From Antedon mediterranea (Eukaryota; Echinodermata; Crinoidea; Comatulida; Antedonidae), in assembly GCF_964355755.1 (NCBI RefSeq), contig NC_092675.1:20412912-20476911 (forward strand): a stretch of DNA of 64,000 bases, written 5' to 3'. Both the position numbers and the translations under genes were made by a program. This document shows, in pieces, positions 9,043 through 56,868 of this stretch (position 1 is its first letter; every line of letters begins with the position of its first letter). Under the pieces are notes generated by a model. The model made no database searches and had not been told where the DNA came from. It saw nothing but the letters and a program-made list of their open reading frames with translations.

Positions 9043-9377
9043 CCCTTTACCCGTGTGGTTCAGCGACCGGGTTGACATTTTACCTTGTTTAAACCGGCCT
9101 GAATTTCTGCGTCCCAGGAACAATTTGGGTTACTTAATTCTGGATCAACTTGATTTGAGTTGTTATTTGTCCTAGACTCCTACTGTAAATTCAAACTATA
9201 CTTTCAAATGATGTTTTTATTTACAATATAATTTTGTACACAATTTTAATTTCAGTGATTTTTTTTATGAATGGTGGGTAATTTCTTTTTTTCAGTGACT
9301 TCTTGAAAGTGTACCAATACCCAGCGGTGGACAGCCGGGGCAAGTCAGGCTTACAGTACTTATGCCATCTGTGAATA

Positions 9378-10712
9378 ATGAATTTATACAAAAGTGAACA
9401 TTGTGGAGATAAACTTCAAACACACCAAGAGTTTAAATTTCTTCGATGTCAAGTGAACGTTGTCAGACTTTGTCTAGATTTAAATAGTGGATGGAGCAGA
9501 CATTTGGGAGAGTACACAGAAGAGACGCCATATGAATGTGTACATTGTGGAAAGAAATTCAACCAGAATGACGATCTGAAAAAACATATGAGAATACACA
9601 CAGGAGAGAAACCATATGAATGTGAACATTGTGGGAAGAAATTCAACCAGAATGACGATCTGAAAAAACATATGAGAATACACAAAGAAGAGACACCATA
9701 TGAATGTGAAAATTGTGGGAAGAAATTCAAAGACAATGATGATCTGAAAAAACATTTGAGAATGCACACAGGAGAGAAACCATATGAATGTGAACATTGT
9801 GGAAAGAAGTTTAACCAGAGTGACGATCTGAAAAGACATATGAGAATACACACAGGAGAGAAACCATATGAATGTGAACATTGTGGGAAGAAATTCAACC
9901 AGAATGACGATCTGAAAAAACATATGAGAATACACACAGGAGACGAACCATATGAATGTGAACATTGTGGAAAGAAGTTTAACCAGAGTGATGATCTGAA
10001 AAAACATTTGAAAATACACACCAGAGAGAAAACATATGAATGTGAACATTGTGGGAAGAAATTCAACCGGAATGACAGTTTGAAAAAACATATGAGAATA
10101 CACACAGGAGAGAAACCATATGAATGTGAACATTGTGGGAAGAAATTCAACCACATTGGGAATTTGAAAATTCATTTGAGAATACACACAGGAGAGAAAC
10201 CATATGAATGTGAACATTGTGGGAAGAAATTCAACCAGATTGGGCGTTTGAAAATTCATTTGAGAATACACACAGGAGAGAAACCATATGAATGTGAACA
10301 TTGTGGGAAGAAATTCAACTGGAATGACGATCTGAAAAAACATACGAGAATACACACAGGAGAGAAACCATATGAATGTGAACATTGTGGGAAGAAATTC
10401 AACCGGAATGACGTTCTGAAAAAACATATGAGAATACACACAGGAGAGAAACCATATGAATGTGAACATTGTGGGAAGAAATTCAACCAGATTGGGAATT
10501 TGGGAAGACATTTGAGAATACACACAGGAGAGACACCATATGAATGTGAACATTGTAAAAAGAAATTCAACCAGATTGGGAATTTGGGAAGACATTTTAG
10601 AATACACACAGGAGAGACACCATATGAATGTGAACATTGTGGGACGAAATTCAAACAGAATGACGATCTGAAAAAAACATTTGAGAATACACACAGAAGA
10701 GACACCATATGA
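9378..10712 (+). CDS. C2H2 zinc-finger array protein, 13 intact fingers
   Basis: The ORF encodes 444 aa. After about 50 N-terminal residues with no recognised domain there are 13 consecutive C2H2 fingers of exactly 28 aa (C-x2-C-x12-H-x3-H), mostly joined by TGEKP linkers, and a 14th that is frameshifted before its histidines. Such tandem arrays usually bind DNA in the nucleus. Helix contact positions -1, 2, 3 and 6 are repetitive: Q/D/D/K in many fingers, with variants R/D/S/K, W/D/D/K, H/G/N/I and Q/G/N/R. No KRAB, SCAN or BTB domain is visible. An in-frame TGA lies just before the chosen ATG, so any further N-terminus must come from upstream exons. A pyrimidine-tract acceptor occurs near 9294. 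The frame breaks at an extra A near 10671, and homologous fingers continue beyond, so this may be the surviving part of a decaying gene. Confidence 0.75.
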
Positions 10713-12575
<1,863 letters not shown>

Positions 12576-19727: not shown

Positions 19728-22700
19728 CTAAAAACGAAAGTGAGGAGGGTAACCACCTCGCATCAGTGGGCGGCGTTCTGGAAGCCGACGCGGTGGTGGT
19801 GGTCCATATTCGTGATATGGGTGCCCTCTTTGATACCTGTACGGATGGTCTTGGTATCGGTGCTCTTCATATCGGCTATCCTCATAGCGTGAACCAGCAT
19901 ATGGTGGAGGAGGCCTATGGTGATAATCCGGTACATCCATACGTCGACGCGGTCTGTAATCGTCATAGTGCCCTCTATAGTGGTCATGATCCAAGGAATC
20001 GTACGAGTGATGCTCTTCTCTATAATCATCCCATTCATTAGATTCTTCAGTGTAATTTTTAGCGGGAACAACAACTGAACTTAGTCTGCGCTTCAAAGCT
20101 GGTTTAGCAGGAGCAGGAGCACCGAGTACTGGTATAGCATTTCTGACTGGCTGTTTAACTACAGAAACTATTGACTTAACTGGGCTTGGGAGATCTAAAA
20201 GCGGGACAATCTTTACATTAGATGGAGGTGTACCAGGTGGTGGGCCAGCTCGTTTTGCATTTGGTGGCGGAGGCCCAGGCGGTGGCCCGGGTGGTGGACC
20301 AGCACTACCTATAGTTGTAATAGTTGATATTTTCTCAGTTTTCATTGTGTTAGCAATAGACATGATTGGTTGTGGAGTAACAGGTGAAGCTACAGTAACT
20401 GTGGGGGGCTGAGTGGTTATGTCCTCCTCAGGTACAGATTCTTGAACACTCTCAGGTTTATCTTTTTCACACTTGACCACACTGTCATCTTCTTCGTCAT
20501 CTTCATCATCATCTTGTTTCAGTGAAGACAAAAATGCGCCAAGGGCTATGGAATGAGATGATTTAATTTTAGTTTCTGGCAACTTCTCCCTTTTTGGTGG
20601 TTCTACATCATCAATGTTGTTAGCATCTGGAGCTTGTCGTCTTTTCAATATTGAGCGAGGTTTTGATAATTCAACGTCTTTTGAGGAGTCGGTTGTCATT
20701 TGTTGATCGTCTGTACCTTCACTAGCTTGATCTACATCATTTCTTTGAAGCTTTTCTTCCATTTCAGATTTTGATTTGAATGTTTGATCATCAACAGTTG
20801 GAACAGTCTTTAGAGCCGTTAGGTTGCTGAGCAGATTTGGTCTTTGTACATTACGAGGTTGCTTTGATGCCGTTATAATCCTGGTTAAGAACCCAATTGG
20901 ATTTGTTTTAGCTTGCTGCATTAATTCTTTATCTTCTGCTTCATCTTCAACTGTGTTGTACTCATCTGGGGCACTGTAGCTAGGCTGTGAGTACTCCTTA
21001 CTGTTACCTTCATACGAAGTCCTTTGGTTAACGTATGGTTTGTAACTGTCACTGGTATAACTATTATCATAGCTTTCACTTGGAAAACTTGGCGTCTGAT
21101 ACTCTTGTTGCGGGTCTGAATAATTAACGCCTGACGATGGCTTGTAATCATTCTGTGGCATGGGAGGAGGGACAGATGGGGGGTAATTTGCCGCAAAATT
21201 GGGCGGCGGCACTGTTAGGTCATATGAATTGAGTGCTGAGTAGGCTGATGGCTGAACTGTCTGCTTGGTTGGAGAATATAGATCTGGTGAAGGCGGAGGA
21301 TTATACTGCGCATTGTTTGATGATGTCGGTATTGTTGAATAATTTGCCTCCTGACTGTTTTGTTGTCCATAGAACGGAGGAGCAGTGTACACTGCTGGTG
21401 CGTAGTTTTGCGAATATACACCAGACGATGTTGGCTGTGCTGATGTACCAATAGATGTAGCAGTATAACTTGCGTCTGTGGTTGTAGCATTTTGGAAATA
21501 CGCATTAGAAGTAAATGGAGCATTAGTTTGAGGGGTACTGACTGGTGGCGGTATCTGTGAAGGTACTGGTTGCGGTATTTGTGGAGGGGCTGATGGCGCA
21601 TATGTAGTCGAATACTGCTGTGTTGATTCTGTGTACATGCTGCTGTATGTTGAGGTGTTTGTCTCTGTCGGAAATGAAACGGGTGGAAAATTGGAACTTG
21701 TATCATGTACAGGTGGTACAGGTTGAGGGAATGGAGAAGGGGGAAGTGGGGGTAAAAGATTTTGGGCTGTAGCCTGGTATGAAGGTTGGACTGTGTTGTA
21801 AGTGTCAGATTGACTGTTTGTAATAGGGGAAATGTTTAATCCTTCTGGAGTGCCTTCTGGTGAAGGAGCGGAACCATTTGATTCTGGCGAATAGGATGCT
21901 GGTGCATCATCGGCATACTTCCCAACTTGACCTTCAAAAAAATACAAACAATATTACTGTTAATATTACAGTATGACATAAATTGAAACTCTTCTGTACT
22001 TTCTTAGGCCAGTTTCTGGACCTAGAGTCAGGCAAAACTGTCTCAAGAAATGGAGCGAGGAAACACGTCCCATTGAAAAGTCGCAAAAGGAAAACTCCTT
22101 ATTTAAGGGGCGATTCCAGCTTTAAGGGGCGATTCCAGCTTTAAGGGGCGATTCCAGCTTTAAGGGGCGATTCCAGCTTTAAGGGGCGATTCCAGCTTTA
22201 AGGGGCGATTCCAGCTTTAAGGGGCGATTCCAGCTTTAAGGGGCGATTCCAGCTTTAAGGGGCGATTCCAGCGTTATAGACTTGTGTTTGGGGGGTTCGC
22301 TAAATATTTCATAAATAATAAAACAATCCGTCAGGTTGCAGAAAAATAAAATTAGTCATTATTTTATTTTAAAAAAGACAAAAGATTTTAGGGGGGCTAA
22401 AGCCTGTTTAGTCCCCGCCTAAATCCGCCCCTGCCTACACCAATCAGTACCAACTTTTTAAGTGAAACCATGTCCATATAACATATGCAAGGTCGAAGCT
22501 TTAACAGTAAATAGTATATATTGATAATGATTACCAGCAATGGTTGCAATTGGTTGTCCAATGGTGGGAGGTCCAGGCAATTTTAAAGGTGCTGCTTTCT
22601 TAGACGTCTTCTTTGTTGGTCTGGATGAGGCTGCTGTATAAACAATAAGTAAATATTAAACTATCAGAAATAGTATGACATAAATGACCCTTTAAAAAGA

Positions 22701-44841: not shown

Positions 44842-44997
44842 TTGACCTGTTTATACATTATTTGAAGGTTTGCGGTACACCATGTACATTAGTTCTGAAA
44901 ATAACTGTTAAGTTCCTTGATGTTTCGATCAATATGCTTTGATCATCTTCAGGAGTGAGAACCGCAAACTTCATATCAACATTGACCTGTTTATACA
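44842..44997 (-). mobile_element. Small insertion with 16-bp direct repeats and a hammerhead-like core
   Basis: TTGACCTGTTTATACA occurs at 44842-44857 and 44982-44997 and brackets 124 bp. On the minus strand the insert has GTTTGCGGT near its start and the exact complement ACCGCAAAC near its end. Between them lie CTGAAGA (44952-44946), a stem TGATCAA/TTGATC and GAAAC, the CUGANGA...GAAA order of a hammerhead core. Penelope-like elements are known to carry such motifs. Ribozyme activity is not shown. Confidence 0.6.
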
Positions 44998-54180: not shown

Positions 54181-54800
54181 TAAACTGACTCTAAACAATG
54201 AGAGGCAAGCTCATTAATGAGTTTTATACTTTAGAGAAGATGGATACATGTGGAGTAATCTACAAAGTCACCTGCCGCAACTGTACACAAGTTTACATTG
54301 GGGAAACAGGGAGGGCATTACAAACACGAATTAATGATCACAAAAAAGATGTTACAACAAACACGGGGGGAGTAATGACTAGGGCCTCCAGAACATCCAC
54401 ATCTTTGATCATACACAAATCTGCCATTACAGAACATGTCATAAAACACAATCATGTACCAAACTGGGAGGCTACCATCTTAACCAAAGAGCCTAAACGC
54501 AAAGACAGACAGATTAGAGAATCATTACATATAAGGAGAAATAAGGAGAAGACCATGAACCGGGACACTGGAGCCCACGAACTCTCGCATTTGTACAATG
54601 ATTTGATAGACACATCACCTGGCCGAGCCCCGCACAACCTCCAACCTACAACCGGAGGCGTACGACGTCATCAACAGATGACGTCAAGAATGACTAAGCT
54701 GCATTAACACTCCGCAGTCAGTTGAGAAGGATCTCTGATAGAGATCGAAACGTTCGAGTAAGTACTCCGTTAACTTGTGCTTTTACAAAAACGAAATTTG
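54181..54800 (+). mobile_element. 5'-truncated Penelope-like element with GIY-YIG ORF
   Basis: The ORF 54198-54707 (169 aa) encodes GVIYKVTCRNCTQVYIGETG, ALQTRINDHKKDV, AITEHVIKHNHVPNWEAT and RQIRESLHIRR, the GIY-YIG nuclease found at the C-terminus of Penelope-like reverse transcriptases. No RT domain lies upstream within the window, so it is truncated. The natural stop TAA at 54705-54707 is followed by GATCTCTGATAGAGATCG and AAACGTTCGAG (54730-54757), the stem-loop/GAAACG 3' feature seen in such elements. The ORF is undamaged, so the copy is relatively young. Confidence 0.85.
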
Positions 54801-56868
54801 TCATCTATACAAAATCGAAGCTAAATGAAATTCTTTCAAGACTTTAGAATACAGTTAGTAGAGGTGTGAATAAATAAGGAATGTGCTAAATTTGTTTGAT
54901 TGACTGCTCTACTGCTCAAAGCAGTCAATCTTTCAACGCATAAACATAGTTAGAACAGAGTGCAATAAATGATAAAAGCTACATTATACTGAAACACAAT
55001 ATCCTACAGCCATCCAGTACTGACATTGCTATTCAGTTGGTACAGTTTTACACTTAAACCACTTGAATATATCAATATTTATCAGATACTGTACTGTAGT
55101 TATCTAATACTATACACTAATTATATTTTAGGCAGCATGTATGATGAGTCATCTGTGTGCACAGTGTGTCATAAGCAAAATATTTTGACACCATACATGG
55201 CAATATTCTTGCTCAATACCATTGAAAAATATACTATACAGTATACATTAGAATATTATTACAGATTTACCATAGCACAAATATATTCAAACCTCAATTC
55301 GAAATAAGCAATGTTTAATATTATTAAATTAAAGTCATCTTCTTATTTATAGGTTAATCAAAAAACACATTGATGACACGCCAGAAGCCTACCCTAGTAT
55401 CTGTAATTGGAAATCTTTCATTAATATGAATCTAGATTTGTTATCACTTGTTTATCACTGTGTGTGAATATTAATTTTTAACTAAAACCATTAATAACTA
55501 TAGATAAGGCTTATTATAATGAAATTAACATACTGTAATGCACAAGGCTCAAACGTACGGTATCTCATATTGGAGAAAATCTCATATTTAAACTTTATAC
55601 AGTATACTGTGAATAGACAATACAGCCTACAGTACAGTATCATGCATTTATTTATTTATTTATTATGAATGCAGCACTGCAGTTTGTGAATAGTCTCAGC
55701 AAATTGTACAATAAGCAAATTTGTATGCTTTTAATTGTATTCGCATAAGGCTGATACTTGGTTAAAATCTAATTAGAAAAGTCTGTAAATAAATTATTAG
55801 AAATGTCTGACAGTAGCAATCGTCGTTGTCATTCTATCTGTGCAAATTAATGCATCGGATAATACAGTAGGTGCCACACAATAGCCGGCTTGCACTCATT
55901 AAATCCAAGTTTAGTGCAACTGCAAATTATAATTTTGTACTGTACAGCACAATGTACTGTGTTTTTCTTTTTGTATTTTGAAGGATGCACCTTTGAATCA
56001 TAACCAATTTAAAGGTGATATTGGAATCCAAATAAATAAATAATTGATTGGATGTGGCAGAAATATAATATTAATCAATAATGTTAAATTATTGTATCTA
56101 GGGAAATTTGTTTGTAGTTTTTACTAAAATGATTTTATATTCAATTTATTCTCCTATCCAGTATGCTTCTGTTAAATAATTTTTTGTAATTGATATATAC
56201 TGTTACTGGTACGACTACGAATCACTGCTATTTATACTACAGATAACACATGTATTATATATTTATAGTGAGTTATTGTAATGGGTAATACCAAGAATTG
56301 AAGATCTTAAGAAGTAAACTTTTAAGCAATATTTCTGAATAATAAACCATTATCTTATTTTTGTCCACAGTTGTACTTCTTAAAAACCAATGAATGAAAT
56401 GTTGTTGAAAATAGTGAAAGAAGGCAGAGATTGAATGAAAGATACTGTACATGCAGTAGAGGAAACAAAAGGAAAGCATTCTTAAAAGCTGGAAATAATA
56501 TAAAACAATTGCTGGTTTTCTGGCCTTCCTATTGTTGAATACTCCCTGGTTTTGATGAGTTTGATATAAGTTTGATTGAATAATAGCTTTAAATTCACTA
56601 ATGCCCTCCTCTCAAGAGAACTTATCAGGCCTGCCCATCAACATGTATCATGATATTTGGGTCTCACATTAAGTAGACATGTGATAGTAACAACCTTTCA
56701 TGTTCACGATAAGCCAGATAATACAATGAAGATGCCGAGTCGAAAAGTAATTCTGCACAGAATGACTGTTAGACTCAATAGCTGCATAGCCATATGACAA
56801 GTTATGAAAATGAATTTCGTTATTACAGTATAATATATTGTTTAAAATAGGAAAACATCATTACCATT
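54801..56868. other. ABHD17 3' flank, otherwise gene-poor
   Basis: AT-rich. A perfect 11-bp stem, GATTGACTGCT/AGCAGTCAATC, lies at 54898-54930. The part next to 56868 should include the ABHD17 3'UTR. ORFs of 68-93 codons (55026, 56273) have no recognisable features. Confidence 0.45.

What the first reader, a model, noticed from the sequence alone, without database searches (positions are those of the whole stretch)
44842..44997. 124-bp insertion with 16-bp direct repeats and a hammerhead-like core
Perfect 16-bp repeats flank a small insert whose ends pair (GTTTGCGGT/ACCGCAAAC). On the minus strand its middle has CTGAAGA, a 6-7-bp stem and GAAAC, the order of a hammerhead core. It may be a drastically shortened Penelope-like copy or a small self-cleaving retroelement such as a retrozyme.
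Basis: partly seen in the sequence, partly recalled or inferred. Interest (0 to 1): 0.6.

Follow-up and report, generated by a model that had tools for sequence, protein, structure and literature searches.

The report
Tiny Penelope-like retroelement copy with hammerhead
A 124-base insert in an animal genome is a very short copy of a Penelope-like retrotransposon that carries a decayed hammerhead-type ribozyme motif; it is a known kind of element, but its hundreds of sister copies show an unusually strict pattern in how both of their ends were made.

Summary
Perfect 16-bp repeats (44842-44857, 44982-44997) flank a 124-bp insert whose minus strand carries a hammerhead-like core. It is a short copy of a Penelope-like element (PLE), not a retrozyme. 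The genome holds at least 529 copies of the motif (control 0). Longer copies have a 3' UTR, a GIY-YIG endonuclease domain (Pfam 3e-6) and a PLE-like reverse-transcriptase end upstream. The paired ends are not ribozyme stems: they are the same 3' tail inserted twice, head to head. Rfam hammerhead models miss the motif, but six PLE families in this genome share the variant: YUGANRA, one extra base, a varying stem II, GAAAC, no or almost no stem III. The window copy has lost its GUC and a stem I pair through CpG-type changes, so it is probably inactive. In 37 two-ended insertions of the family, 36 have one short and one long (+32 nt) end; the 37th is the window copy, whose long end has a 32-nt deletion. 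A second family shows 6 of 6. This fits two reverse-transcription starts, one per target end, at two fixed sites. The kind is known; the strictness may be new.

The parts
44842..44857 (.). Target-site duplication, left copy (TTGACCTGTTTATACA)
   Evidence: Exact 16-bp direct repeat; sister insertions have duplications of 8-13 bp in 22 of 36 cases against 4% in mismatched controls
44858..44981 (-). The whole 124-bp insert: Penelope-like element, tail end plus hammerhead segment, with an inverted tail fragment
   Evidence: Minus strand 90% identical over 97 nt to the family unit, plus an inverted 23-nt piece at 96%
44858..44868 (-). Remnant of the long tail end (CCTTCAAATAA; family CCTTCAAACAATAT, start of the element's ORF: ATG CAA ACC TTC AAA CAA)
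   Evidence: With its neighbours it reads GCAAACCTTCAAATAAT, 16 of 17 identical to the family's long end GCAAACCTTCAAACAAT
44868..44873 (-). Site of a 32-nt deletion between two GCAAAC repeats
   Evidence: Family units have GCAAAC at unit positions 210-215 and 242-247 (numbering); the joined form occurs in only 11 places at <= 3 mismatches against 757 undeleted tails
44868..44961 (-). Sense segment of the element (unit positions 122-215); its start at position 122 coincides with the preferred 5' end of the family
   Evidence: BLAST alignment; 39 of 91 pieces start at positions 118-124
44919..44955 (-). Hammerhead-type motif: CTC | CTGAAGA | T | GATCAA-AGCATA-TTGATC | GAAAC | ATC
   Evidence: Sequence; same layout in six PLE families of this genome; ATC replaces the family's GTC, a CpG-type change
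44961..44982 (+). Inverted short tail end (ACCGCAAACTTCATATCAACAT), the second reverse-transcription product; causes the terminal pairing
   Evidence: Matches unit positions 207-229 in inverse orientation
44982..44997 (.). Target-site duplication, right copy
   Evidence: Exact 16-bp direct repeat

Best explanation
The insert is a solo, very short copy of a canonical GIY-YIG-containing Penelope-like element (PLE), inserted by two-ended target-primed reverse transcription. Proposed steps: (1) element RNA starts near the Inr-like TTCTCACTC, so its 5' part holds the hammerhead, then the 5' UTR and the ORF start; (2) the PLE protein cuts both target strands about 12-16 nt apart; (3) each 3' end primes reverse transcription inside the RNA, one at the 'long' site (in the first codons of the ORF), the other at the 'short' site 32 nt upstream; (4) the long-site product ran through the hammerhead to the RNA 5' end (unit position 122), the short-site product stopped after about 22 nt; (5) the two products were joined head to head and the gaps filled, leaving the 16-bp duplication. 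Later, or during copying, 32 nt were lost between two GCAAAC repeats, and CpG changes damaged the ribozyme motif. Shown here: family membership, copy number, GIY-YIG and PLE-like RT sequence in longer copies, duplication, inverted tail, short/long ends, piled-up 5' ends. Inferred: transcription start, two-strand priming, the order of steps, former self-cleavage.
For: Sister copies: 79 matches in the first search; 529 places with the motif at <= 2 mismatches, 0 for the reversed control. Longer copies: GIY-YIG domain (Pfam PF01541, 3e-6) about 450 nt upstream of the motif in L041; PLE-like RT C-terminal segment in L108, with the same hammerhead unit downstream. The long end lies in an ATG CAA ACC TTC AAA CAA reading start. 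Ends: 36 of 37 head-to-head insertions have one short and one long end; the exception is the window copy, read by eye as short + deleted long. A second PLE family shows 6 of 6, with ends 34 nt apart. Duplications >= 8 nt in 23 of 37 pairs, 4% in mismatched controls. 5' ends: 39 of 91 at positions 118-124. Published parallels: rotifer Penelope with inverted pLTR, 9-bp duplication and an optional 31-bp tail on one of the inverted pLTRs (PMC3846280); the Anolis PLE protein cuts and extends both strands and starts at two adjacent internal sites that bound the 'tail' (PMC11167929). Six PLE families here share the hammerhead-type layout.
Against: No intact full-length member of this particular family was read; the coding parts seen are broken. 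No RNA data: the transcription start is inferred from 5' ends only, and reverse transcriptase stalling at the structured motif could give the same pile-up. The RT identification of L108 rests on similarity judged by eye to the genome's other PLE proteins; Pfam gave no RT hit for that fragment. No Rfam hammerhead hit in any copy.
Confidence: 0.88

Rival explanations
1. A retrozyme: a small non-coding retroelement spread as a circular RNA made by tandem hammerhead cleavage.
For: Small size, hammerhead order, dispersed copies with target duplications.
Against: Metazoan retrozymes are tandem repeats with canonical type I hammerheads with helix III or loop contacts (PMC7229834, PMC7761336). Here copies are single or head-to-head inverted, not tandem; the motif has no usable helix III; longer copies carry coding sequence. 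If copies came from circular RNA opened at the ribozyme cut, units should begin at position 165; only 6 of 91 begin at 160-171.
Confidence: 0.04
2. A non-autonomous mini-family of its own (a PLE-derived SINE-like element of about 140 nt, from the 5' end at position 121 to the tail at 260) mobilised in trans by an intact PLE.
For: 5' ends pile up at 118-124 and most copies are short; intact PLE ORFs of another family exist (L109); no intact ORF of this family was seen.
Against: The same sequence occurs joined to the family's own 3' UTR and endonuclease, so short copies can simply be run-off products of the mRNA 5' end. A search for the upstream region gave 167 first-look candidates.
Confidence: 0.15
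3. Chance resemblance to a hammerhead in an unrelated duplication with inverted ends.
For: No Rfam model hit.
Against: 529 copies, PLE coding sequence next to it, the same layout with different stem sequences in five other PLE families, 0.24 expected per shuffled window.
Confidence: 0.01
4. The inverted ends arise by self-priming or template jumping on one cDNA (as proposed for rotifer PLEs) and not by two target-primed starts.
For: Head-to-head inverted junctions with palindromes led the rotifer authors to propose self-priming (PMC3846280).
Against: It does not explain why one end is always short and the other long, at two fixed sites that resemble the two in vitro starts of the Anolis PLE (PMC11167929).
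Confidence: 0.2

Closest known systems
Penelope/Poseidon-type GIY-YIG-containing PLEs (Penelope of Drosophila virilis, rotifer Pen families, Anolis Poseidon PAc)
   Same: GIY-YIG domain after a PLE-like RT segment, pseudo-LTR with hammerhead motif close to the ORF start, inverted pLTR, tail of about 30-40 nt, target duplications (PMC3846280, PMC11167929)
   Different: Host species and family not identified by name; target duplications mostly 11-13 (16 here) against 8-9 in the rotifer; every two-ended insertion has exactly one short and one long end, where the papers describe the tail as optional
Minimal type I hammerheads of PLEs and Terminons
   Same: Motif in the pseudo-LTR, helix III missing or minimal (PMC6155905, PMC7761336), catalytic bases in order
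   Different: One extra base between A9 and stem II in all six families here; three families have U3-A8 in place of C3-G8. The original reports (Cervera 2014, Lunse 2017) were not readable here, so these may already be described
Metazoan retrozymes
   Same: Small, hammerhead-bearing, dispersed
   Different: Not tandem, no canonical hammerhead, linked to a coding element

Membership tests
[quoted passage not shown]
   PF01541, E 3e-6, in the long copy L041 upstream of the same hammerhead unit; absent from the short window copy itself
Penelope-like element (GIY-YIG containing) | PLE-type reverse transcriptase in the same ORF | tested here: inconclusive
   L108 holds a segment (FTMEEENDHTLPFLDVFVTKE...YRKPTHTNIYLH) resembling the RT C-terminal part of the genome's other PLE proteins, upstream of the same unit; Pfam gave no RT hit for it and no full RT of this family was read
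Penelope-like element (GIY-YIG containing) | Pseudo-LTRs, with inverted pLTR arrangement and a tail of about 30-40 nt | tested here: met
   37 head-to-head pairs; ends 32 nt apart
Penelope-like element (GIY-YIG containing) | Target-site duplications of variable length | tested here: met
   16 bp at the window copy; >= 8 bp in 23 of 37 pairs against 4% control
Hammerhead ribozyme (PLE-type minimal type I) | CUGANGA - stem II - GAAA(C) - UH order with stem I | tested here: met
   Family unit CTC-CTGAGGA-c-GATCAA..TTGATC-GAAAC-GTC-GAG; the layout recurs with different stem II sequences in six families
Hammerhead ribozyme (PLE-type minimal type I) | Match to a hammerhead covariance model | tested here: not met
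   No Rfam hammerhead model reported in the window or 12 sister loci; expected for a form with one extra base and no stem III, so I file the motif as hammerhead-like only
Hammerhead ribozyme (PLE-type minimal type I) | Self-cleavage | not testable with these tools
   Needs RNA; the window copy has ATC for GTC and lost the first stem I pair
Retrozyme | Tandem repeat of a non-coding unit with canonical hammerheads | tested here: not met
   Copies single or inverted, no helix III, coding relatives
Retrozyme | Circular RNA | not testable with these tools
   No RNA data

The most novel reading that the evidence does not exclude
In PLE integration the two ends are always made from two different, fixed start sites on the RNA, one per target strand, about 32-34 nt apart. 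That would mean the 'optional tail' is not optional but present once per complete two-ended insertion, because a dimeric reverse transcriptase seated on one RNA presents one short and one long start site. The window copy is a minimal example: one product ran off the RNA 5' end, the other stopped after about 22 nt.
Probability: 0.45. Interest if true: 0.6.

Novelty: new member of a known kind. Interest (0 to 1): 0.42.

Why it matters
PLE transposition is poorly understood; the first active PLE protein was studied in vitro only in 2024, and its hammerhead was not needed for insertion there (PMC11167929). This genome holds hundreds of small, well-preserved insertions in which both ends and the target duplication can be read. 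The strict one-short-one-long rule in two families, and the pile-up of 5' ends, turn the mechanism into testable statements: two coupled starts, run-off to a defined RNA 5' end, and no sign that ribozyme-cut RNA (5' end at position 165) is a common template.

Tried and rejected
Rfam at gathering threshold and at E <= 10 on the window, and at E <= 1 on 13 loci: no hammerhead (the miRNA-like hits in L024 lie on its inverted repeat). Pfam accession PF26215 does not exist in the library. A first GIY-YIG search hit other PLE families, not this one; the family's own domain was found from long copies instead. MAFFT alignments of the family motifs misaligned the core, so no covariance model was built. 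Considered and rejected: terminal pairing as a hammerhead stem (it is an inverted duplication); retrozyme; chance. A search by assembly size did not name the host. The key papers on PLE hammerheads (Cervera 2014; Lunse 2017) are not held.

Full report
What is there. TTGACCTGTTTATACA occurs at 44842-44857 and 44982-44997, and the 124 bases between them carry on the minus strand CTGAAGA, a 6-bp stem and GAAAC. A descriptor for this arrangement finds two sites in the window and 0.24 on average in shuffled windows; the second site, at 54722, sits in another Penelope-like fragment.

It is a repeat family. A search of the host genome (354 Mb, 18 contigs) with the insert gave 79 matches from the 40 best candidates. 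The motif alone, with up to two mismatches, occurs 529 times, and the reversed control 0 times. Aligned copies give a unit that I number 1-260...ATTCTCACTC CTGAGGA C GATCAAAGCATATTGATC GAAAC GTC GAGAAACTC ... GGTGTACCGCAAACTTTATATCAACAT, then TTGATTTCGCC ATG CAAACCTTCAAACAATAT.

It is a Penelope-like element. Longer copies extend upstream through about 450 nt without clear coding to a GIY-YIG domain (GVYCIPCECGKVYIGETGRDLQTRLKEH..., PF01541, 3e-6), and one (L108) further into a segment that resembles the C-terminal part of PLE reverse transcriptases. Pfam does not recognise that fragment, and I saw no complete reverse transcriptase of this family. The unit ends within a likely ORF start, ATG CAA ACC TTC AAA CAA, as expected for a PLE pseudo-LTR.

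The anatomy of the insert. Read on the minus strand it is: an inverted 22-nt piece of the tail (about unit 228 back to 207), joined directly to unit 122-215, then the last 11 nt of the long tail. A 32-nt segment between two GCAAAC repeats is missing. The deleted join is rare in the genome (11 places at up to 3 mismatches; 757 undeleted tails), so it looks like a recurrent slip rather than a subfamily.

Both ends tell how it was inserted. Copies end either after ATCAACAT (short) or 32 nt later after TTCAAACAATAT (long). An automatic classification of 37 head-to-head insertions gave 36 with one short and one long end, in both orders, and one short/short. That one is the window copy, whose long end was missed because of the deletion; by eye it obeys the rule (GCAAACCTTCAAATAAT matches the long end at 16 of 17 positions). 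If ends were chosen independently with equal chance, 36 of 36 would have a probability of about 1.5e-11. Duplications of 8 nt or more flank 23 of 37 pairs, against 4% when ends of different loci are compared. A second, unrelated PLE family shows 6 of 6 with ends 34 nt apart. Earlier work describes a 31-bp tail 'optionally' present on one of the inverted pLTRs (PMC3846280), and shows that the Anolis PLE protein cuts and extends both target strands and starts at two adjacent internal sites that bound the tail (PMC11167929). My data fit those reports and suggest the tail is not optional in two-ended insertions. Whether this strictness is already known I could not establish. Copies without a detectable inverted piece also exist; they have a single tail end and a blunt other end, so the rule concerns two-ended insertions only.

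Where the products stop. Of 91 pieces with a tail end, 39 begin at unit positions 118-124, just before an Inr-like TCACT and the hammerhead; a TCACT Inr-like element is also described in a rotifer pLTR (PMC3846280). I infer that this is the RNA 5' end, so that the window copy's sense piece (start 122) is a complete run-off product. Only 6 pieces begin near the expected ribozyme cut (160-171). Stalling at the RNA structure is an alternative.

The hammerhead. In six PLE families of this genome, the motif near the ORF end has the same layout with different stems: CTGAGGA c GATCAA/TTGATC; TTGAGAA g GATCTCT/AGAGATC; TTGATAA t GAC/GTC; CTGATGA t GAGAA/TTCTC; CTGAAGA a GTC/GAC; TTGAAAA t GGT/ACC, each followed by GAAAC and then GTC or GTT, with 0, 1 or 2 bases between. 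Stem II changes on both sides between families, which supports a real structure. The descriptor required C3-G8 or U3-A8, so that covariation is partly built into the search; three families have each. All six have exactly one extra base before stem II, although none or two were also allowed. PLE hammerheads without helix III are known (PMC6155905, PMC7761336), and insertions of up to one or two bases next to CUGANGA are compatible with known alignments (PMC10085705). In the window copy GTCGAG has become ATCAAG: two CpG-type changes that remove the G of GUC and the first stem I pair. Across about 60 copies the CpG positions are among the most variable ones, so this is ordinary decay.

Conclusion. 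Its value is as one of hundreds of small insertions that record the mechanism.

Noticed in passing
window 54195-54850 (+): Fragment of a second, unrelated PLE family: GIY-YIG C-terminal part, hammerhead-like motif at 54722 and a long-type tail end. This family has intact 857-aa ORFs elsewhere (L109).
   Followed up: partly
L033, L109, L111, L112, L114-L116, L120, L121, L123: Three PLE families carry U3-A8 in place of the C3-G8 core pair of the hammerhead, one of them with an intact ORF; the descriptor required a matching pair, so this needs an unbiased check.
   Followed up: partly
G000:C2:15953027-15954187: A PLE reverse transcriptase match lies in a reported open frame of 2453 codons, far longer than the usual 860.
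   Followed up: no
L002, L004, L022: Three loci share about 1.9 kb at 96-98% identity around one copy of the insert: a duplicated segment, with internal repeats of about 320 nt downstream.
   Followed up: no
window 9375-12572: Array of C2H2 zinc-finger coding repeats with long open frames.
   Followed up: no
window 22102-22290: Minisatellite with a unit of about 19 bases (TTTAAGGGGCGATTCCAGC).
   Followed up: no
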